Shown one piece after another: positions 120 to 15,600 of a DNA stretch of 64,000 nt. The position numbers were made by a program, and so were the translations under genes. Position 1 is the first letter of the stretch. Each line of letters opens with the position of its first letter. This DNA is from Lanius collurio (taxonomy: Eukaryota; Chordata; Aves; Passeriformes; Laniidae), in the NCBI GenBank assembly GCA_020086605.1, contig JACBWW010000015.1, forward strand, positions 21,069,819 to 21,133,818, read 5' to 3'. Below the pieces are notes generated by a model. The model saw nothing but the letters and a program-made list of their open reading frames with translations, ran no database searches and was not told where the DNA came from.

Positions 120-3100
120 AGAAGGGGATATTATTAAAATCTTTAATTAAGCATTTATTTTACTCCTTTATTTGGCATTGAATCAATTTGTCATTAGTTG
201 TTTTATTATTTAATTAGTGTGCTTAATTACTGTAAATACTATTAGGGCTAAATCCTGCAAGTTGACATTCCTAGGGATGTCAATTAAAATTCACACCATT
301 ACCCAGGTTTAGAAAAATACAGAGTTTCTTTTGAGGTACTGCTTATGACAACCAAAATATTACTGTAAAAATTTTTTTGTTCCTGGAATGACTTGAGTGC
401 AAAGTAACAGAGGTTGTTTGAAGCACAAGGAGCCATTGTGACTACATGAAGTTGGTGGAAATTTTAATTAGACTTCATTGGGGTAATTGCTGTGTCCTTG
501 GAAATGGAACACTCTGAAAAAGAGCACAGAATTTGGCCTTCTTGTTATGGGAGAATATCACAGAAAATTTAATGCAATTCATTACTGAAGTGAGACACTG
601 CACTGGAGCTCACAAGATGGTGGCCTCAAGTGCAATGGGATGTGGGCAGCATTATTTGGAGAATGCAGTAACAATTATTCCAGTCTTGTACTAGATTGAA
701 ATATCAAGGGAATACCTCAACCAAAAATAAAACAAAATTCAATGGTAGAGCAACAGCAACCCTGTCTTTTTTTTTTCTTTTTCATTTTCACATCTACAGA
801 AGAACTGCATGATTGGGAAGGTTCTCAGGTAGAAAAGGGGTAGTTAGTGTTTTGGAATAACATCAAATAAGTGAGTAATTTATTCACTACAAAAAAAAAA
901 ATGTTTTGGGGTTATTAACATGATCATTGACCTGGGAAAAAAAATTATTTAGAGAAAGCTGCCTATATTATTTCCTGAAAGGCAAAATAATTCACTGTGT
1001 TATTTCCAAAAGAGGGAGGTTTAACTTCTGTTTTGACATGATTTTTTATTTTAATTAAAAACTAAAACCCTAGTGAAACAAAACATTTTACTTTCATTCC
1101 CATAATATTTAATGCAAGATTATGTTCCTGTTTTATTTTCTGGCTGAGTGAGGGAAAAAAATAGAGAAAATGCTGTCTTAGATTAATCCAAACCAAAAAT
1201 TTTTCGCAGGTTTTCTTTTGAGCTACTGACCTGAGCAGTTTCCATTCCTCGCAGCTTTCCCCTTCCCTGCTCTCTTAAGGTGCTTGGCAAAGTGCAGGAA
1301 GTGAGAGGAGAGATGATGCACAGACAAGATCCTAACTGTTGAGAGGTCAGAGCTGAAATTTGAGTCCAGGCATAGCTGAAGGGAGGAGAGATAGCAGGGG
1401 GCAGGAGGCAAAGCCAAATAAAGTCAGTGGGAGATTCTCCATTGACTTCAGCGGATGTTGAATCCAAACCAAACCAACAGAGAAGTGTGAAAAATGAACA
1501 ATGGGGCATGAGGAAGGAAAGGACAGAGAGTGATGTGAAGTGGGGGAAAATACCATCTGCTCTACTTGCTGCAGCCCTGGGAAAGCAGGTATAATTTTTT
1601 TTGGCTGTCAGCACAAGCTCAACATCCCCCTCTAACTTTGTGAAGTGTAACACTGAGCACATCAGGGAGATGTAGGATTTTTCAGTGGATGCTAACAGCA
1701 TTCTTGCTCAAGCTGAGGAAGTTGTTCACATATAATACAGTACCATTTCCCCATGCATCTACTATAAAAAATGTAATCTAAAAGCTTCCACCGAGATAAA
1801 TAGATGAAGCAGATGGACAGGGAAATTAAAAGAAATTGGCAAGGTAGAAAAGATAAATGGTCAACTGAGATTTGAAATGAAGAAGAGAGTCAATGAGGCA
1901 GAGAGACACAGTGAAGCTATTCCAGATGGTAGAGGCTGCGGAGAAGGCGGCTCTTAAAACATTTGAGAAATTCAGACTGAGAGAGGTCCGGTGGCAACGA
2001 GAGCATGGAGAGTCAGAAGCCACCTAAACCTGGATGATGTCGGGGCCAGAAAAGAGGTCACAGCCCAAGAGGACTTCAGCGACTCAGCAGAGGCCAAGCT
2101 GCTTCTCTCAGACTTCAACATCTCAGCCTGTACATTGCACCTGCCATTCTCTGCCTACTGTTGAGCTGCTTGCTACATCACCTTTTCCTCATGAATCAAG
2201 GGACAGGATCAGAATCAGAAAAGGTCAGAAACAGCTGTCCAGATGCAAACAACTCTGAAAAATGGGATTGTTTAAAACCCAGTCTCTTCATCCTGATATA
2301 GCTGTGCAATCTCTCCTTGCCTGGATCTGAATTCCTTTTCTTCAGAGTGGCTTTTTCTTCTGGCCAAACAGAAAAATTTGCTGAAGTTGCTGTTTCTTGT
2401 GTCCTGTGTGTTATCTAGACCTGTGTGTTATTGCTGCAAAGAGAAAACTGTACCGAGGGATAACAATTGCTAAGTTACAAAGGGTTTTTTGAATGTGTAT
2501 TGGCTTTAACAACTGCAGGTTAGTTGTCCAAGAGCAGTCCACAGAACCCATTGATGTGAATATTTTAAGACATTATCCCTGCCCTCTATGGAGCAAAGGT
2601 GCTCAGCTTTTGAGGATCTTAAAGCAAGAATTGTCACCCTAAACCTTCCTCAGTGGCCGGCTATATTCTGCAATAAAGTGCAGCACTTGGCTCCAAACCC
2701 TCTTCTTTTCATTAGCTATACTGAAGTAATGTTATAGGAATGAGAGACTGAGGTTTACTTCTAATTTTTGGTACTATTTTTGGGAGCAATCTTAATAAGA
2801 CGAGGGGTTATACTGTCAAAGTCTGTTGCATCAACTGTACAATTTTACAGCTCCATTTTGTGGTAAGATCCACGTAATTGAAACTTCAACATCAATTTAC
2901 TTGATTATAAGTCTGTGTCACTGAGCAAATGGCCATCAAAAGCCTCTCCTCCTACTTCTGATTTCCTGAACTTCAAAATGGAATATTAAGTGCCATTTAG
3001 CCACTGACAGTTGCAATACCCCATTTATCAGCCTATTAGGTACAGCAAGTAACACTAATGGGGGTGAATGTAAAATAACAAAAGACTAGCACCCATGTTG

Positions 3101-6085
3101 CTTTTCCCTGCTGAAAGGGATAATTCAGTAATTACTGAGCATGCCTCATTTAGTACCCAGGCCAGAGGAAGGGAAATGGGTTATTCTCAAGGTTTCAGGT
3201 GGCTAAATTAAACAGCTGCTAATATATTTTTTAGCTTAATTTTATCTTTTTGCATATTCTAATAGGCAGATTTCACAGAAGAAAGATATTTTAATGAAAT
3301 TTACATGGGAATCACTAGATTTCTCATACACACTTAAGTCAGAACAACATACCTAAGACACAACCTGTCATTCTCCACACCTGAAGGTGCTGTGAAGCTT
3401 GTTTTCAGTCAGTTTGATGAATTACTACTTTGTTGAAGTGAATGTTGCAATCCATACCAAAATACAACTCTGAATAAGGGATCTTCCATTTATGATGGCT
3501 TCCAAAGCAGGAAACTGCACTAAATATTATGCACAGCATAATATTTTTAAATTAACAAGCAGATTGTCAGTTAAAGTAAATAATTCTGCTTATTTGAAGT
3601 AGAAGGCCTTTGCTAATTGGTACCATAAATATATCTAAATATTTATATATTGATATTAAATCTGGCCTTATGGGAAGCTGAGTACACTGAGGAGATGGTG
3701 TTGAAATACCTTTACATTTGCTGTTCTACCAAAAAGATTTACACCCCGCACCTCCTGTTAATGAATTGTCCCTCTCTGAGTTTGTATCACAGGTGGCCTT
3801 AGCACAAACTGGATTTATGTTTCTTCAAACTGAACTAAAATAACTGCCCCAGGGCTTCACCTGATATGCTCTCTAAAGGGCACTGTGGGACTGGAGCTTG
3901 AAGCAGTGCGAAGTGAATCCCTTGAAATATGTGCACTGTGGACCTTTCTGGACAAGACTGCTCATACAGGCTGCAGTATTTGCTAAAATAGATATGGTTT
4001 GAGTGTACTAAACCCAAATACTAAATTACAAACATAAAGTGGTGGCAGTACAGCAATCGAAAGCCAGGATAGCAAGGAGATGTACCATTTCCTGGAAAAA
4101 CCTGACTGCAACAAATATGAAGCTTATATGACTAAGTGAAAATTTTGGCTTGGGTTAAAGAAAATAAATAAAAATATTTAAGGAATAAAGGAATTCACTA
4201 GCATAATCAGTATTATCACAGGACAGAAGATGTTAGTCACCAGCCTTTGATGCTTGATAAAATGTCATCAGCACCTGGAGTTTTGAACTACAGCATAGCT
4301 CTCACCTCCAGTTCCCCCAATTAATTATCCAGATTTCTGGAATATCAATTTCCTGCAGAGAGAGTTTACAGTTTCAAATCAACAAGGTGATATTTATTTA
4401 CAAAAACAATTAAGTTCCATCTTTTTTGCTGAAAAAGATAGAAATCAATTACAATAAAAAAAAAAAGCCTGATTGAGGCTCATCCAGCCAGTGCTACAGC
4501 CAAAAAGAAAACTCAGCTGGGCTGTGGATCAGGCCTGAATTTTAAACTTTTGACCTCAACCTTGCTGGATTTTTTTTGAGCAAAAGAAATGTATATCAGA
4601 CTAATTTAATTCCCTTCTGCACAAACAGATGATATATCTATGTTTTTTTGAGATTTTACAATATTCTCATATAAAATTACAATTTTTCACTTTTTGTTTT
4701 TAATTCCACTGCAACAAATGAAAGCAAATAGAGAACTTTTTTCTCTTCCCTGAAATCTTTTTTTCAGAATAATCACACGTAGTATATTTTGCATGTCCCA
4801 TTTTAAAAATTAAAGGGTAATTGAAGGACTATTGTCACAACAAAACAAAACTGTGGCTGTAATATACAACAGTATTCTGCTAATAAACTTTTAACAAGTA
4901 CAGATGTTAATTACAAAGATCAAACATAGAAAAGGAACAAGGGAAAAATTCTCAGGAAGTGCTAAAGAGAGTCCATCATTGGGATTCTGATTTTCCATCA
5001 CAAAAACTTGACTTTAAAAGGAGTAAAGCTACAGGAACATTATTTACAGTAAAAAACATTTTCAGCGAATACTTGCTGTGAGGGTACAATAAGAAAAACA
5101 AATCTCACTACACAGAAGTAGATAAAAGACAAGGAATATTAGACTGACAGACATTGGTAACCCACAGATAGCAGCTAATCCAACGGGATTTTTATAATTT
5201 GGCTTTGGAATTACACAGCCCTCCACAAGAAACATTAGGTCTTTTAAGCTTTGCTCTTTCTCATCCTAGTTTGGTAATTTTTCAATACTTTCTGAGTTTA
5301 GAAGAGTTTACAATTTTACTTAAGTCCCCCATAGGGAATTCCTGAAGTGTAGCCATTAAGGCAGTATCATGATGTGATATGTCATCTGGAAATGTTTAGG
5401 AAATAAGAACTCTGGTGTTCCTAACTCCTGGCTTTCCTCCTTCTACCCTCACCTCCTCTTTCTAGAAAATGCCAAGAACTCCTGAAAATTTTTATTTGCC
5501 CTTGAAACAATGATGATCCAACAAAATAACTGAAGGAAACACTGACATGGATACTGCTCATGGTGTCCAGTGTTCCCAGGAGCTGTGTCCTTCAGGAGTC
5601 GGTCAGGCTGTGAGGGCTGGAGGACAGCTGTGGTGCAAGGACGCACATCTGGGATGCTAGCACTAGAGGGTGGTAGGGAAAGAAGGGAGCTTCTTGAAAT
5701 GAGTGCTTTTCTTTCCCTAGCTCTTCCACTTCATCACCTGAACATCATAATTCTTCTCTCCTTATTTTTCAGGCCCAAGAGGAGAGATAAAACAATTTTT
5801 TAGAGAGACCACACAAGTTAAAGCTGTGTGTTCAAGTAGGTTGCAATGTAGCAAACTAACCATCTACAAAATAAAAATACATGTGTGAATTGAGGGTTCA
5901 GAGAGTAACTCTATATTTTTCCTCCCATGTTAGAGATAAGTCCACATTTATGGTAAGAGTCAATTTTGCCCTGAGTAACGCAAGATGTCTAAAGACTTAG
6001 ATAATGGCAGAATTCTGTATTGGCTATTTGATCTTGAGGATTCATAGTCCAGCTAGAAAATAAACTCAGTATCCTCTTCCCAGTC
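120..6085. other. AT-rich non-coding stretch
   Basis: I see no supported gene here. The open frames are short, or are low-complexity readings of one strand. The part at about 120-330 is unusually dense in TAATTA/ATTA homeodomain-type cores and could be a conserved non-coding element, which cannot be judged without other genomes. A small inverted repeat at 1421-1448 is listed separately. Confidence 0.6.
1421..1448. repeat. Imperfect inverted repeat, 13-14 bp arms
   Basis: The left arm, AAGTCAGTGGGAGA, is almost the reverse complement of the right arm, TCTCCATTGACTT, with nearly no spacer. From memory, similar 'CATTGACTTCAATGG' segments recur in amniote genomes, so this may be a relic of an ancient dispersed repeat. 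I cannot name the family. Confidence 0.45.
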
Positions 6086-10178: not shown

Positions 10179-10184
10179 TAGCAG
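10179..10184. repeat. Left target-site duplication TAGCAG
   Basis: TAGCAG lies directly before the TG of the 5' LTR and is repeated exactly after the CA of the 3' LTR at 12663-12668. A 6-bp duplication is typical of class II (ERVK/betaretrovirus-like) integrases. It shows that the whole 10185-12662 unit went in as one integration. Confidence 0.9.
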
Positions 10185-10480
10185 TGTGGAAGTGCCTTCC
10201 CCTGAAATCCTGGGGGGAGGGACCCTGCAGGGTACAGGTTTGTCCCTGTCCCTGCTCCCATGTCACGTGTGCCCCATACCTGTTCCTGATTGGGTGGTTT
10301 TGGGTGCCTGGGACCAGGGAGGAGAGCAGGTCCCATGACTGGAAATTGGCCTGGGAACTACAGCCATGCGGCTGGAGGAATAAAATAATCCCTGAACATC
10401 TACAAAAATATTGCTTCATCTTTCCTTCCAAGTTCATCGCTGTCTTATACATGTTGTAAATGATTCCCCTCATTACAACA
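10185..10480 (+). repeat. 5' LTR of the Y-box-carrying element
   Basis: This 296-bp LTR begins TGTGGA and ends ACAACA, and aligns along its length with the 3' LTR at 12381-12662. Visible promoter-type motifs are an E-box CACGTG at 10264-10269, which the 3' copy lacks, and an inverted CCAAT box (ATTGG) at 10289-10293. The polyadenylation signal AATAAA is at 10379-10384, with a conserved T/C-rich stretch after it. No clear TATA box was seen. Confidence 0.9.
10379..10384 (+). promoter_or_regulatory. AATAAA polyadenylation signal in 5' LTR
   Basis: AATAAA follows the conserved CCATGCGGCTG block and is retained at the matching place in the 3' LTR (12562-12567). It marks the R region, with U5 after it. 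Confidence 0.7.
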
Positions 10481-10482
10481 AA

Positions 10483-10500
10483 TGGTGGAGAAATGCTGGC
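10483..10500 (+). promoter_or_regulatory. Probable tRNA primer binding site
   Basis: An 18-nt stretch beginning TGGTGGAG lies two bases after the LTR end. Retroviral primer sites begin TGG, complementary to the tRNA 3' CCA, so position and start fit. I could not assign the tRNA. An ATG (10482-10484) overlaps the site and opens a short frame that runs to the splice donor at 10526. Confidence 0.6.
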
Positions 10501-10525
10501 AAATGATCCCTGGAGAAGATAATTC

Positions 10526-10531
10526 GTAAGT
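10526..10531 (+). promoter_or_regulatory. Candidate leader splice donor GTAAGT
   Basis: GTAAGT, a full match to the intron-side donor consensus, lies in the leader between the primer site and the gag ATG, where retroviruses keep their major donor. The frame opened at 10482 stays open to this point and ends in phase 2. AG dinucleotides ending at 11615 and 11627 would join it in frame with the cold-shock reading frame. Confidence 0.45.
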
Positions 10532-10581
10532 AACTCTCGATATTTCTTCTTGGTTTCATTTTGTTGTCCCATCTCTGAACG

Positions 10582-10989
10582 ATGGAGAACTCATGGAAGG
10601 ATTCATGGCTGTCCGAACCACAAAGAGACATTTACCTTAAACATAAAAAGGTTCTTGAACAGCAATGCGTAGATTTTAGCTTAATTCAAGCTCAGAAAGA
10701 ACTAAGACACTTTTTGGTATGGCTGTTTAAAAATTTCGTCAATGTTTCCTGGGATTTGATTCTTATCAAGGACTTTTGGAAGAATGTTTGGACACAGTTA
10801 ATTTCCCAATCAAAAAACGTGCCGATGCAAGACTGTTTCTGTGACTATTACCTGATTTCAGAGACTGTTGAGCAATATCGGCTGTGTTCTGCTATGGTTT
10901 CAGCAGCGACCACGTGGTCGAGCAGCGCAAGATTTGCAGGGTCTACTCCGCCACCCCGGAGACTGTGCGGCCCTGGCCGTGGGCGCTGA
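10582..10989 (+). pseudogene. gag: Gag remnant, matrix (MA) region, truncated
   Basis: This frame starts at the first good ATG after the leader and stays open for 135 codons. The first 95 or so residues look like a betaretrovirus-type matrix domain: a short polar N-terminus, then alternating amphipathic helices with a tyrosine after a charged stretch, a double-leucine/tryptophan block and a second tryptophan-containing helix. From about 10875 the frame runs into CpG-rich DNA and becomes Ser/Arg/Pro-rich until the TGA at 10987-10989. A different frame is open over about 10872-11270, which suggests a frameshift near the junction. There is no capsid major homology region and no CCHC zinc knuckle. 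In a working virus, Gag MA targets the polyprotein to membranes. Here only the start survives. The assignment rests on pattern and position, not alignment. Confidence 0.65.
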
Positions 10990-11598
10990 GTGCATTGCGG
11001 GCGGCAGCGAGGGAGCTCCAGTGCATGGGAGAGCCAGTGAGGCCAGGCATGGCGGGAGCAGAGCCGGCGGGGAGACCGGAGGCGGCGGGAGTGGAGCCAG
11101 GAGCGACGCGGCGGCGCAGGCCCGGTGGTGTTCGCCCTGAGGCAGCGGTGAGGGCGGTGGCGGCTGAGGCGCGTCCTGGCAATGGCCATGCCGTGTGGCG
11201 AGCGATGGTTCAAGCTCCACACCGAGAAAGGCAACGGCGATTGTGGCAGTCGCTATGGCGGCCGTGGTGAGCCACGCCGAGCAGAGCCAGAGGGGCGTGG
11301 GGGCGAGAAGGGAACCGTGCTAGCCCACGGCCACACAGCCAACAGCAGCAGCGGCAGTGCCGGCGGTACAAAGCCGCAAACACGCAAACACCTCTCAGGG
11401 CACGGCCGTGCAGCTGCGCGAACGCCCAGAGAGCGTGGAGCCGTCACACGGAGCTCCAGAGGGGGAGTGAGCATGGCACCAAACGGTGGTGTGGAGGTGG
11501 CCGAAGGCGGAGCAGCCAGCAGGGTCAGCGTGCAGCAGCACAGCCTGACCAGACCCGCACGGCCCTGCACACGATCCCAAAGAGTCCAGACCCCGTGA
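10900..11598 (+). other. CpG-rich, frame-broken linker between gag start and cold-shock frame
   Basis: This stretch is strikingly rich in G+C and CpG compared with the flanking DNA. Plus-strand frames open in turn (about 10872-11267, then 11182-11595) and encode Ala/Arg/Pro/Gly-rich sequence with no recognisable fold. It may combine a proline/alanine-rich Gag spacer with the low-complexity N-terminus of the captured Y-box gene, since Y-box proteins have Ala/Pro/Gly-rich N-termini. The last segment (11182-11595) is in the same frame as the cold-shock domain and is separated from it by one TGA at 11596-11598. The long antisense frames here are composition artefacts. Confidence 0.5.
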
Positions 11599-12141
11599 CA
11601 GGAACGCACTGGCAGCCCTAGCCCCAGTGGTCCCGGCTGTGGCAGCTCCGACAAGAGAGTTAGTAAACCCGAAAGTGAAAGCAAGAACAAAGGAACTCGG
11701 AAAAATGAAAAGGTTATCACAGCTAGGGTTTTTGGAACTGTAAAATGGTATAATGTAAAGAAAAATTACGGTTTCTTGTTGAAAAATGATAGTGGAGGAA
11801 GTATTTTTGTCCATAAATCTGCTATTGTAAAAAATAACCCCAAAAGTGATGTTCCAAGCTTAGAAGAAGGAGAAAGAGCAGAATTTAACATTGTGCAAGG
11901 AAGGAAGGGCCCACAGGCCGCCTGTGTTACAGGCCCTGAGGGTGTCCCTGTCAAAGGCAGTAGATATGCTGGACAATATCCCCATAATCCCTATCCTCTG
12001 CCCTATCCCACCTTCCCCTTTTATCCCATACCCCTTTATCCCCCATATATGCCCAGCTCAAATTCCCCTTTCTGGTTCCCCTCACAAAACCATGCTTTTT
12101 CATTTGTCATGAGTCCCTTTGCAGTGCCGATGGGGCAATGA
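11599..12141 (+). CDS. Captured Y-box cold-shock domain protein (no in-frame ATG near its start)
   Basis: This 180-codon frame runs from after the TGA at 11596-11598 to the TGA at 12139-12141. Residues 1-37 are Ser/Lys/Glu-rich. Residues 38-124 (11710-11970) form a complete Y-box-type cold-shock domain, a five-stranded beta barrel that binds single-stranded RNA/DNA. Family marks are the GTVKWYN strand (Trp at 11746), NYGF in the RNP1 position (11764-11775, with Asn for the usual Gly), IFVH as RNP2 (11803-11814), the KNNP loop and GVPVKGSRYA at the end. The nucleic-acid-stacking Trp, Phe and His are kept. The domain is intronless, whereas vertebrate YBX genes split it over several exons, so it came from mRNA. 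Residues 125-180 form a Pro/Tyr/Phe-rich tail with no Lys or Arg, unlike the basic/acidic islands of YBX1-3. Expression would need splicing, readthrough or a non-ATG start. A degraded relic is the alternative, but the whole domain is open. Confidence 0.8.
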   Translation, partial: QERTGSPSPSGPGCGSSDKRVSKPESESKNKGTRKNEKVITARVFGTVKWYNVKKNYGFLLKNDSGGSIFVHKSAIVKNNPKSDVPSLEEGERAEFNIVQGRKGPQAACVTGPEGVPVKGSRYAGQYPHNPYPLPYPTFPFYPIPLYPPYMPSSNSPFWFPSQNHAFSFVMSPFAVPMGQ

Positions 12142-12160
12142 AAAGGAGGGAGGGAAGAAA
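12141..12160 (+). other. All-purine run after the cold-shock stop codon
   Basis: Twenty consecutive purines with GGAGGGAGGG-like content follow the stop codon. The run could be a relic of a second polypurine tract or simply part of the 3' untranslated region of the captured gene. Confidence 0.35.
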
Positions 12161-12363
12161 TTAACTGTCATTTTCTTAGATTCCAACAGGTACAGAAAGA
12201 AAAATCCTCTCCTCAGTTATCATCTGAAGCATGCTCAAGTCCTATCTCCCTTCTGATGCTCCAAAGGAAATCTGTTTGGACATTTGGGGACTCAAGACAG
12301 TGGCTTCCTTTCCTTTGAAATTGTTTTGTTGTTTATCCAACTGTTTCCAGTGTTGTTTTATTT
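12161..12363 (+). other. Element 3' region, possible 3' UTR or env-tail relic
   Basis: About 200 bp between the cold-shock gene and the 3' LTR. In one frame the last part (about 12300-12375) encodes a hydrophobic, Phe/Leu-rich stretch followed by a basic cluster next to the purine tract. That is where a retroviral env transmembrane tail would end. The identification is tentative. The rest could be 3' untranslated sequence from the captured mRNA. Confidence 0.3.
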
Positions 12364-12380
12364 AATAAGAAAGGGTGAGA
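12364..12380 (+). promoter_or_regulatory. Polypurine tract before 3' LTR
   Basis: A nearly pure purine stretch (two T interruptions) with AAGAAAGGG lies immediately before the TGTGGA of the 3' LTR. This is the position of the primer for plus-strand DNA synthesis in retroelements. Confidence 0.7.
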
Positions 12381-12662
12381 TGTGGAGGTGCCTTCCTCTT
12401 GGGGGAAGGGACCCTGCAGGGTACGGGTCTGTCCCTGTCCCCCTGTCCCCCGTGCCCCATACCTGTGCTTGATTGGTTGGGTTTGGGTGCCCGGGGCCAG
12501 GGAGGAGAGCAGGGTCCCATGACTGGAGTCTGCCTGGGAACTTCAGCCATGCGGCTGAAGGAATAAAATAATCCCTGAATATCATCAAAAATATCACTTA
12601 ATCTTTCCTTCCAAGTTCATCACTGTCTTATTTATGTTGTAAGGATTCCCCTCATTACAACA
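12381..12662 (+). repeat. 3' LTR of the Y-box-carrying element
   Basis: This 282-bp LTR has the same TG...CA ends as the 5' copy. It differs by scattered substitutions and a few short gaps (near the start, in the middle T/C-rich part and near the end), roughly one site in ten by eye. It keeps the inverted CCAAT box (ATTGG, 12472-12476) and AATAAA (12562-12567) but lacks the CACGTG E-box of the 5' copy. Confidence 0.9.
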
Positions 12663-12668
12663 TAGCAG
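12663..12668. repeat. Right target-site duplication TAGCAG
   Basis: An exact match to 10179-10184, directly after the terminal CA of the 3' LTR. It confirms the right end of the element. Confidence 0.9.
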
Positions 12669-15600
12669 ATCTCATTAGATGGGTGCTCTTCAAAAAACCA
12701 TAGATTTATTTTACTGTATGCTTTTTGTAAGCTTTCTGTTTTCATTTAATATCTCTATAGGTTGTCATGAAGACTACAGCCTCTTTGCAACAGACTTTAC
12801 AGGCTCCAGGAAATATCAGCTCTTCTCAAAGTCATGCTAAATTTAGCTGATTTGTCTTTGTCACCTACATCATTTATGTCTCTATAATTGTTAGAGTCAA
12901 ACTTCTGTAATGCCCTCATCTCCTGCTTGCTGCAAGTGATTTTGACCCAGATGGGTGGTATTGCTGACAATCTATTCCTGTATTAACACACACCAGGGTC
13001 TCTACTTTATTTTTCTCTTTCCTTTATATAATGTATCCCACAGTATATGTATCCATATTTCTGCTATCCTGTGACACTCAATTTCACATTTTCCACCAGC
13101 AAATCTCTTTCTTCCACCTTTTTGCCCATTTGTCTTGCATCATTACAAAAAACATTTCAGTTGTTTTTGAAAGCCAGTAAAGAAACAACTCTTAATTTTC
13201 ATTCACTGCATCTATCTTATCATGACAAGAAAGACACAAGAACTACAGCTTTTTCCCTGATCATCTTTCTACTCTCCAGTATCTTTCACCCTTTGTTATA
13301 TGTTTCTTATTTCTCCCTCTGCTTATTTAACTGTGTTTACCAGCCATGCCTACCTCACCCTCAGAAAGGTACTAGCCCTGCTACTCCAGTGGAGTCCATC
13401 TGTCTGGAGGAACTCTTGTTCCATGAATGCTTCCTAATGGTCAGACATCCTCAGACTTTCCTCACAGCATTTATCCTTGAGCCACCTGCTCATCTTTGCC
13501 ATCTCACCATGCCTTTGCCTTCCTTTTCTGAGGACTGGAAAGCTTCCACTGAATGCTATGCACATGGAAATACCATTGTCACCTGGCAGAAAGAAAATGT
13601 CTTCCATCTTGTGGATATTACACCATTTTAAAATGAAACCGTGTTTACAATGAAGACTATAGGCTTCCCACACCCAAATCTTCATTCTGCCAGTGGCTAC
13701 TGGGCCAGATAAGTGGGGCCACTTTCCCAGCTGCTTTTTTGCAATCTTATTAGAGATTAAGTCAAGAAAACCAAAACTGAAGAAAGATGCTGGCAGCAAT
13801 ATTACCAGGGGAGGAAAGAGCAGATATCCTAGAACAAGATGCAATTTTTCTGTAATTATTTACAGGTAATATGTATTTGGGGTTGGAAAAATATACTTAC
13901 TGTGACCTTGTTGGGCAGCATAGTGCTGTTCTTTTATAGCAGATCTTATAAATGGGAATATGGAAAAAGGTAATAAATATCCTCAGGTAAATCCCAGCCA
14001 AAGTCAAATCAGTAAATACTTTTTCTTGTATTTAAACATGGGTGAGATTTCACATCCATTATTTAGGTGCACAGTCTTTAAAACAGTAAAGAGAGAAACG
14101 GAGACAAAAAGACAGTGCTTGGAATGCTTTCCTGTCAGACTCAACAGTCCTGGTTCAGGGGCCTAATAGTTTTCCGAGTTTAAGGACTTTTATCTCACTG
14201 CATTGAAACCACTTTCACATCGGAAACTGCCCCAACGTTATGTTGGCACAGCTTATCTGATGGCGGATCACATCACCCTACAGCAACAAGGGGCGCTGCA
14301 GGCAGCTACAAGGGGAGAGCAGCTCTGCCCTCATCCCACCCAGCCCGTACAACCCAGCCCAAACCCACAGGCTGGGTTAGGATGTTACCAGGAGGCTAAG
14401 GCTCGACAGCTTCGCTATCCTGTGTTTAGCTGACCTCAGCTCAGCACCCTGGCTGCAGGGCTCCTGCTCACCTTGGACACTAGGCAGAGTACAGACAATT
14501 TAGACCAAAGATTGCTGCTCTAAACCAATATGGCAGCTCTTGAACTATACATTTTCACACCTGTTTTCATAGATAAATAATAGCAGTTCTTATGCACTGC
14601 CATTCTGGACATATTTAAACCTTTAAAATATTTTCTATTGTTTTTAAAAGGACAAAAATTAACACTTTGTTTTCTCAACAGGGGGCTTTTCCTACCTAGC
14701 AGCACTATGCAGAGTATTGTTTTCTATTTTGCTGTGCCAACTTTTCTGAAAATGGGGTGCACATAAACACAGCCTGGTAATTTTCTTACCCTTCTCTTAT
14801 CCCTCTCTATGTCACTATTCAACAAGCAGTAACCACTTAGCATTAAGTCTGCCCCGCCCTTAACAGCCACACAGCACAATTCAGGTGCAAGGGCCATGTT
14901 TGATGCAGCTGAAGTGCAGCTCCATCACAGCACTAAAGCAAGATGAGCAACTTGACAAGAGTGAGCCATCACTGAGAAGCTAGGCAGGGGTTTAAGAGCA
15001 CAAAGCTATTCTCTGACTTAATAAATGAACTGCAGTGTTGCATGGCCACACTTGTTTCAGTACTAGGAGATGTAGACAGTGTTTACATCTAAGGAATTAT
15101 GTCAACTTCACTGCATAAATGAGTGAGAACCTAAAGAGTTTTGCACTTTTATAAGTTCTTGAAGAATATACAGGAAGAAAATATGAACTACCCCAAACTG
15201 GAAAAATATAAAAGACTTTGCTCTAGTTAATGTTTCAAAAGACAAGCAGTTTTCTTTGTATTTACTTCTATGCCTGCAGCTATAATGAATTATTTAAGCA
15301 ATATCTGTAGAGTACAGGATCTGTGCTTTTATTTTATTTATTTGTCTATTTTATCACAGGCTACTTACAAGGGCAAGTGTGCTGTGTCAACACAGGCGTA
15401 AATCACTGCACTTTTCCTTTAATCAGCTGAACTAGGCAAACTGACACCCATCACAAAGCTGACCCAATATATTTAGTGTAGAACAGTTTCCTATTATGTA
15501 ATTAATAATGGACTTGTTTATTACTATTTCTCAAACAACAAGATTGGCAAGGTGTATTTCTTCCATCTCCCTCCTTTTTTTACCTTCTCATTTCATTTTA

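What the first reader, a model, noticed from the sequence alone, without database searches (positions are those of the whole stretch)
10185..12662. Endogenous retroelement that has captured a host Y-box cold-shock gene
Seen: two LTRs with TG...CA ends, an exact 6-bp target duplication, a primer-site-like leader, a gag matrix start, and then a complete Y-box cold-shock domain where capsid, pol and env should be. Known: retroviruses sometimes swap their own genes for host cDNA, and class II elements make 6-bp duplications. Inference: a defective element carrying an RNA-binding regulator, moved by a helper. A cold-shock protein as retroviral cargo would be unusual. It could package or stabilise element RNA, or be a co-opted gene.
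Basis: partly seen in the sequence, partly recalled or inferred. Interest (0 to 1): 0.88.

Follow-up and report, generated by a model that had tools for sequence, protein, structure and literature searches.

The report
Retroelement family carrying Y-box cold-shock gene
A genome, probably a songbird's, holds many copies of a small LTR retroelement whose single protein joins an element-specific front part to a Y-box cold-shock RNA-binding domain, which was likely captured from a host messenger RNA and is predicted to help the element's RNA spread with enzymes borrowed from another retroelement.

Summary
10185-12662 has paired TG...CA LTRs inside an exact 6-bp duplication (TAGCAG) and a complete Y-box cold-shock domain (CSD). 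Of six more recent copies, three hold the whole chimera in one 503-507-residue open frame and one has LTRs without a substitution. Three New Caledonian crow database proteins have the same make-up. Changes shared between copies lean towards synonymous, private ones look neutral; between subfamilies CSD dN/dS is 0.28 (0.69 in a neutral simulation). So the protein was probably selected while the element moved, and copies decay after landing. None of the 37 copies with both LTRs has room for pol; movement by a helper is inferred and no helper was found. The 'gag matrix' is a matrix by position only: Pfam, PDB and a small sample of Gag-bearing ERVs gave no match. The window copy is an old, broken member (four in-frame stops).

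The parts
10179..10184 (.). left target-site duplication TAGCAG
   Evidence: exact match to 12663-12668
10185..10480 (+). 5' LTR, TGTGG...ACAACA
   Evidence: direct repeat of 12381-12662, 84.5% identity with gaps
10481..10581 (+). leader; PBS-like TGGTGGAGAAATGC from 10483
   Evidence: same 14-mer in 15 of 43 copies, 15 more in the four next commonest variants; tRNA not assigned
10582..10887 (+). N-terminal domain ('MA-like' by position), type A
   Evidence: open frame; matches the N-terminal part of crow proteins P0152-P0154; no Pfam or PDB match
10888..11706 (+). GC-rich linker; in three recent copies with an open frame it codes about 245-250 residues rich in Gly/Arg/Ala/Pro with net positive charge; in this copy the frame has four TGA stops, between 10987 and 11598
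   Evidence: composition, frame, recent copies
11599..12141 (+). open frame holding the cold-shock domain and tail, same frame as 10582, no ATG before the CSD
11707..11973 (+). Y-box type cold-shock domain with the RNA-contact residues W, YGF, FVH
   Evidence: Pfam CSD 1.5e-18; YB-1 structures 3.7e-29; residue counts in copies
11974..12138 (+). Pro/Phe/Tyr-rich tail ending the open frame
12142..12380 (+). 3' non-coding region ending in purine tract AATAAGAAAGGGTGAGA (12364-12380)
   Evidence: region present in 40 of 40 copies; purine tract in 6 of 6 recent copies
12381..12662 (+). 3' LTR
12663..12668 (.). right target-site duplication TAGCAG

Best explanation
This is an old, broken copy of a multi-copy, non-autonomous LTR retroelement family whose one long reading frame fuses an element-specific N-terminal domain and a basic linker to a Y-box cold-shock domain that was likely captured once from a spliced host messenger RNA, and the fusion protein likely binds the element's own RNA and escorts it into reverse transcription and integration that a helper would perform. 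SHOWN: repeated mobility (same layout, different 6-bp duplications), open frames in some recent copies, coding bias of changes made before insertion, neutral change after it, retained RNA-contact residues, one element clade, no room for pol in the 37 copies with both LTRs. INFERRED: the RNA-escort role (the CSD standing where a nucleocapsid would act), preference for its own RNA, a class II (ERVK-like) helper.
For: Same order of linker through 3' LTR in 40 of 40 copies. 20 of 37 LTR pairs with exact and different 6-bp duplications at the expected place, five more exact within 3 bp, four with 5 of 6, eight with less; 6 of 6 more recent copies exact (ends allowed to shift by up to 8 bp), one with 0 substitutions in 242 compared LTR positions. 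Open frames of 503, 507 and 506 residues in 3 of those 6; 15 of 150 listed N-terminal matches lie, without a stop, in open frames of 499-509. Crow proteins P0152-P0154 match the N-terminal piece and carry Pfam CSD. Selection: synonymous:nonsynonymous for changes shared by 3 or more copies 13:15 (CSD) and 15:15 (N-terminal), private changes 27:77 and 29:75, neutral expectation 1:2.6 and 1:2.8; both domains pooled Fisher p=0.004, CSD alone p=0.06, N-terminal alone p=0.03. Between-subfamily CSD dN/dS 0.28 (15 against 41 copies, 599 of 615 pairs usable) against 0.69 in neutral simulation. RNA-contact residues W 55, F 56, F 55, H 55 of 57 places. All 20 element CSDs in the tree on one side of a branch, 100/98. 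Host YBX1 has an intron inside the CSD, the element none. Elements with both LTRs are 2.07-2.64 kb. Precedent: MMTV Gag interacts with cellular YB-1 in foci with viral RNA, and YB-1 knockdown lowers particle production (PMC6797609, passage); YB-1 depletion lowers HIV-1 production through viral RNA metabolism (PMC6040738, abstract).
Against: No expression, binding or mobility data. No helper was found; six sampled Gag_p24 stretches do not match the N-terminal domain (best E 0.10), and in at least two of them the LTR lies outside the stretch. The N-terminal domain is not recognisably a retroviral matrix. No capsid, zinc knuckle or PPxY/PTAP motif, so particle entry would have to be through a helper Gag. 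Selection evidence is moderate: changes in exactly two copies are intermediate (8:16 CSD, 7:14 N-terminal), the tail shows little (7:16 shared, 13:49 private, expectation 1:2.8), cells are not independent, and most YBX-like subfamily rows were picked by protein similarity, which favours low dN. Pairwise dN/dS between the three open recent copies is higher for the CSD (0.48-0.81) than for the N-terminal domain (0.18-0.38). Three of the six recent copies, fetched because long frames were listed for them, proved to be interrupted. No structure model could be made.
Confidence: 0.6

Rival explanations
1. Passive passenger: LTRs, primer site and packaging signals alone let helper enzymes move the RNA; the fused frame is incidental cargo.
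For: Other vertebrate elements without coding capacity (ETn, VL30; recalled) move this way; 135 of 150 listed N-terminal matches are not in a full-length stop-free frame; private changes are neutral.
Against: Coding bias of shared changes, low between-subfamily dN/dS, long open frames in some recent copies, retained RNA-contact residues.
Confidence: 0.2
2. Host-acting effector: the Y-box fusion changes host RNA translation or silencing in germ cells and so favours the element indirectly.
For: Y-box proteins are general mRNA-binding translation regulators, YBX2 germ-cell specific (recalled); several element CSDs share K-G-S-R-Y-A-x-N with YBX2 rows; same selection evidence.
Against: No data on targets; a gain shared by all elements in the cell would not by itself select for the frame in cis.
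Confidence: 0.15
3. Nested processed pseudogene: a YBX retrocopy landed inside an unrelated LTR element.
For: The CSD is intronless.
Against: Same junction in 40 of 40 copies; in three recent copies both parts share one open frame. Crow proteins have both parts. In the window there is no poly(A) run after the tail and no direct repeat of 14 bp or more around the CSD; shorter repeats were not scanned.
Confidence: 0.01
4. Co-opted host gene at this locus.
For: The CSD frame is still open in the window copy; 27 of 40 copies have an open CSD core.
Against: Four in-frame stops upstream and no ATG before the CSD; private changes of copies neutral.
Confidence: 0.03

Closest known systems
Maize Bs1 retroelement (passages of PMC13317346)
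   Same: LTR element with host gene segments transduced into it; the title of a paper cited there describes a hybrid open reading frame
   Different: Plant; segments of three different host genes, none full length; low copy number (recalled). Here one RNA-binding domain, many copies in a bird-like genome, signs of selection on the frame, recent movement
Oncogene-transducing (acutely transforming) retroviruses of birds (recalled)
   Same: host cDNA replaces viral genes, fused to an N-terminal viral part, moved by a helper
   Different: those are sporadic exogenous viruses; this is a diversified germline family whose cargo is an RNA-binding domain and shows signs of constraint
Non-autonomous ERVs such as ETn and VL30 (recalled)
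   Same: LTRs without own enzymes, high copy number
   Different: those keep no long selected frame; this family does in some recent copies
Use of cellular YB-1 by MMTV and HIV-1 (PMC6797609 passages; PMC6040738 abstract)
   Same: Y-box protein that helps retrovirus production, with MMTV together with Gag and viral RNA
   Different: there the host supplies YB-1 in trans; here a Y-box domain is encoded by the element and fused to its own protein
Host YBX1/YBX2/YBX3
   Same: complete CSD, 57-66% identical to the YBX1 CSD in the three crow proteins, up to 73% in element copies
   Different: Pro/Phe/Tyr tail and a different N-terminus in place of the long YBX C-terminus (recalled); intronless where host YBX1 has an intron

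Membership tests
LTR retroelement / endogenous retrovirus, class II-like | paired LTRs with TG...CA ends | tested here: met
   further copies (some copies have mutated ends)
LTR retroelement / endogenous retrovirus, class II-like | 6-bp target-site duplication | tested here: met
   window exact; 20 of 37 pairs exact; 6 of 6 recent copies and 4 of 8 YBX-like subfamily loci exact, two of these four without TG...CA ends
LTR retroelement / endogenous retrovirus, class II-like | primer-binding site and polypurine tract | tested here: inconclusive
   recurring PBS-like and purine tracts; no tRNA matched
LTR retroelement / endogenous retrovirus, class II-like | own protease, reverse transcriptase, integrase (autonomous member) | tested here: not met
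   37 copies with both LTRs are 2.07-2.64 kb; one long frame in three recent copies; so non-autonomous only
LTR retroelement / endogenous retrovirus, class II-like | place in an RT phylogeny (class II) | not testable with these tools
   no RT in the element, helper unknown; 'class II' rests on the 6-bp duplication alone
Retroviral Gag | matrix fold or recognised matrix family at the N-terminus | tested here: inconclusive
   no Pfam or PDB hit; no significant match to six sampled ERV stretches upstream of Gag_p24 (hhalign on two); structure prediction switched off
Retroviral Gag | capsid and CCHC nucleocapsid | tested here: not met
   Pfam finds only CSD above cut-off in 6 of 6 fusion proteins; no CCHC motif in the 3 open recent copies
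Y-box cold-shock domain proteins | CSD with RNP motifs and the Y-box-specific extension | tested here: met
Y-box cold-shock domain proteins | descent from one identified paralog (YBX1, 2 or 3) | tested here: inconclusive
   element group 100/98, paralog not resolved; motif K-G-S-R-Y-A-x-N as in YBX2 rows in several copies; YBX3 row recalled, no bird YBX2 or YBX3 in the tree
Host-gene-transducing LTR element | spliced host sequence inside a hybrid frame, copied with the element | tested here: met
   spliced origin tested against host YBX1 only
Processed pseudogene | own poly(A) and flanking duplication around the CSD | tested here: not met
   no poly(A) run after the tail; no direct repeat of 14 bp or more around the CSD, shorter not scanned; shared junction
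Domesticated host gene | locus-specific constraint after insertion | tested here: not met
   private changes neutral as a class; window frame interrupted; orthologues in other species not available

The most novel reading that the evidence does not exclude
A vertebrate LTR retroelement lineage has replaced the RNA-binding business end of Gag with a captured Y-box RNA chaperone: it codes only its own RNA-escort protein, borrows every enzyme, has spread and diversified into several subfamilies under selection, exchanged or diverged its N-terminal domain (two types), and has moved recently.
Probability: 0.45. Interest if true: 0.92.

Novelty: new variant of a known kind. Interest (0 to 1): 0.85.

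Why it matters
Capture of host genes by retroviruses is mostly known from single isolates (recalled). Here a captured RNA-binding domain became part of a prolific germline element and appears to have been kept by selection across subfamilies. Retroviruses are known to lean on cellular YB-1; this family gives a natural experiment in which a Y-box domain has been built into the element, so whether a cold-shock domain can stand in for nucleocapsid, and how a non-autonomous element favours its own RNA, becomes directly testable. It also explains three uncharacterised CSD protein clusters from a crow genome. In ten literature searches of the open library no listed title or abstract start describes such an element; several listings were capped below the number of papers found, and subscription papers, preprints and repeat databases were not searched.

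Tried and rejected
Splicing of an upstream ATG exon onto the CSD (GTAAGT at 10526): present in the first 110 bases of leader in 1 of 43 copies, dropped. Nested pseudogene: rejected by the shared junction. Co-option of this copy: rejected (stops, neutral private changes). Matrix identity by Pfam, PDB profile and comparison with stretches upstream of Gag_p24 in ERVs: no match. Six such stretches of about 1.3 kb were fetched of 150 Gag_p24 matches listed; upstream of p24 the frame was open for 303 or more residues in 5 and for 60 in 1, and in two the frame's first ATG lies within 26 bases of the stretch's start, so their LTR and leader were not covered. hhalign was completed for two; a third was mis-framed and not repeated. 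Viral contigs: 6 stretches matched a pattern, none encodes a relative. The RT family search for a helper did not complete. One search used a wrong frame for CSD and tail and is superseded; searches also used a wrong frame. could not see the crow proteins because of its length band (up to 315 residues), and the wider one search did not have them among its best 120 of 139; one search found them through the N-terminal piece. First dN/dS run (end of script failed) counted three places twice (L051, L052, L053 are the same places as L068, L063, L064); one search repeats it without them, ratio unchanged at 0.28. Rows dropped before those counts: 6 of 66 loci with incomplete CSD, L050 assigned to neither group, 16 of 615 pairs not usable for dS.
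Full report
WHAT IS THERE. The window element runs 10185-12662. Its two LTRs (296 and 282 bp) are 84.5% identical with gaps, begin TG and end CA, and sit between exact copies of TAGCAG. Two bases after the 5' LTR comes a PBS-like TGGTGGAGAAATGC, and AATAAGAAAGGGTGAGA precedes the 3' LTR. A frame starts at 10582 and codes an N-terminal domain of about 102 residues; the same frame runs into a GC-rich stretch and then a complete cold-shock domain with a Pro/Phe/Tyr-rich tail ending at 12141. Four TGA codons interrupt it here between 10987 and 11598, and no ATG precedes the CSD after the last of them. The CSD matches Pfam CSD at 1.5e-18 and Y-box protein structures at 3.7e-29. No other copy of any piece was found in the 64-kb window at E 0.01.

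IT IS A MOBILE FAMILY. The host genome (1.097 Gb, unnamed; probably a songbird by size and by the crow relatives, an inference) was searched with the CSD DNA: 40 matches scored of 1046 first-look candidates, the window itself and 39 others at 92-94%. I fetched the 39. In 40 of 40 the linker, CSD, tail, 3' region and 3' LTR follow in the same order. The N-terminal domain is of the window's type in 27, of a second type (34-44% identical to it over the matched part) in 11 and not found in the fetched span in 2. Of 40 copies 37 showed both LTRs in the fetched span. Of these 37, 20 have an exact 6-bp duplication at the expected place, all 20 different; five more have an exact one within 3 bp, four have 5 of 6 and eight less. 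LTR-LTR distance has median 0.108, range 0.028-0.168; the window pair scores 0.158 there, in an alignment with a misaligned patch, and the BLAST alignment (30 mismatches in 297 columns) gives a lower value. Six more recent copies, picked for the long frames listed there, all have exact duplications (ends allowed to shift by up to 8 bp) and LTR distances of 0-0.083; one pair has one gap and no substitution in 242 positions. With a recalled neutral rate of about 2e-9 per site per year the window copy would be some tens of millions of years old and the youngest under a few million. All these copies were found through the CSD or the fusion protein, so copies of the LTR family without it are not represented.

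THE PROTEIN. In 3 of those 6 recent copies the whole chimera is one open frame of 503, 507 and 506 residues; the other three are interrupted. In these three: about 108 residues of N-terminal domain, about 245-250 of Gly/Arg/Ala/Pro-rich linker with net charge +17 to +25, 85 of CSD and 66 of tail; no CCHC, PPxY or P[TS]AP motif. Of 150 N-terminal matches listed genome-wide (1217 candidates), 15 lie without a stop in open frames of 499-509 residues. A search with the N-terminal piece alone found three protein clusters with E up to 10, all from Corvus moneduloides, one holding 24 sequences, and all three carry a CSD. So the fusion exists as uncharacterised crow proteins of 369-440 residues. The RNA-contact residues of the CSD are kept at most of 57 places: W 55, YGF phenylalanine 56, FVH phenylalanine 55, histidine 55.

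SELECTION. In the 40 window-like copies changes private to one copy are neutral (synonymous:nonsynonymous 27:77 in the CSD, 29:75 in the N-terminal domain of 27 copies; expectation 1:2.6 and 1:2.8), changes seen in two copies 8:16 and 7:14, and changes shared by three or more 13:15 and 15:15. Pooled over both domains, shared by three or more against private, Fisher p=0.004; CSD alone 0.06, N-terminal alone 0.03; the tail (7:16 against 13:49) shows little by itself, and with it p is 0.003. The cells are not independent, so the p values are guides. Between 15 YBX-like and 41 window-like CSDs the NG86 dN/dS is 0.28, within the groups 0.25 and 0.35, against 0.69 for simulated neutral change of the between-group size. 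Most YBX-like rows came from searches by protein similarity, which biases dN down. Mean pairwise difference is 0.059 in the CSD, 0.076 in the tail, 0.079 in the N-terminal domain, 0.070 in the 3' region and 0.133 in the 3' LTR, but the copies were chosen by CSD similarity. Against the simple picture, the three open recent copies show CSD dN/dS of 0.48-0.81 pairwise, linker 0.63-0.98 and tail 0.62-1.03, and the N-terminal domain is the tightest, 0.18-0.38. My reading: the protein matters to the element while it moves, and copies decay freely afterwards.

ORIGIN OF THE CSD. All 20 element CSDs in a 32-row tree fall on one side of a branch (100/98), apart from vertebrate YBX1, YBX2, YBX3 (recalled) and invertebrate Y-box proteins; crow P0154 and copy L048 group nearest the cellular proteins (89/85, not strong). 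The paralog is unresolved; the motif K-G-S-R-Y-A-x-N, as in the YBX2 rows, occurs in P0154 and several copies. The genome's YBX1 gene has a 3' splice site directly before GAEAANVTGP, inside the CSD, whereas the element runs through without a break. This supports capture from spliced RNA, tested on YBX1 only.

WHAT IS NOT SHOWN. The N-terminal domain is called matrix only because of its place. None of 16 members matches a Pfam family at a meaningful score (best 0.037, an unrelated family) and its profile matches no PDB chain (best E 0.44). The genome holds many ERVs with Gag_p24 (150 scored of 261 candidates, many with open frames of 500-800 residues). Stretches of about 1.3 kb upstream of six were fetched; the best N-terminal match has E 0.10, and no LTR or leader match beyond a 10-base one was seen, though in at least two the LTR lies outside the stretch; hhalign on two found nothing. 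So there are plausible sources of enzymes in this genome but no identified helper. First-look counts (1046 to 3706 in different searches) are not copy numbers, and some contigs appear to be duplicate haplotypes.

MECHANISM. The most likely reading is a non-autonomous element that codes its own RNA-binding escort. The Y-box domain, with a basic linker, would coat or select the element's RNA; the N-terminal domain may connect it to a helper Gag or membrane; reverse transcriptase and integrase would come from the helper. Signs of constraint on both domains favour this over a passive passenger. The idea fits work on cellular YB-1: MMTV Gag interacts with YB-1 in foci with viral RNA, and knockdown lowers particle output (passage of PMC6797609 citing Bann 2014, which I did not read); YB-1 depletion reduces HIV-1 production through viral RNA metabolism (abstract of PMC6040738). 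Each step from RNA binding onward is inference.

COMPARISON. Maize Bs1 is the nearest published analogue I saw (passages of PMC13317346): an LTR element with transduced host segments. The present family differs in host, cargo, copy number (Bs1's recalled), constraint and recent movement. In two papers on bird LTR elements a term search found no cold shock ('cold' in PMC6523648) and no non-autonomous element, and nothing on gene capture by bird elements. I file it as a new variant of a known kind.

Noticed in passing
G000 C15:21194514-21194940 (L006, L013): Another copy of the same family, opposite strand, about 113 kb from the window copy on the same contig.
   Followed up: partly
L015, L019, L021, L031, L033, L034, L035, L039, L040, L046, L047 (11 of the 40 window-like copies): A second, divergent N-terminal domain type (34-44% identical to the window's over the matched part) is joined to the same CSD half, suggesting exchange of the 5' part between lineages or a deep split.
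   Followed up: partly
own genome: Many ERVs with Gag_p24 and long open Gag frames (several of 600-815 residues), often on small contigs; possible source of helper enzymes.
   Followed up: partly
C40/C42, C45/C46 and C900 (two places): Pairs of hits with identical scores on different contigs (or twice on one) suggest duplicate haplotypes or segmental duplications in the assembly, so copy counts are somewhat inflated.
   Followed up: no
window 10526-10531: GTAAGT donor-like hexamer in the leader is found only in the window copy (1 of 43).
   Followed up: yes
window 13032-13631, + strand: A 199-codon stop-to-stop frame just downstream of the element; not examined.
   Followed up: no
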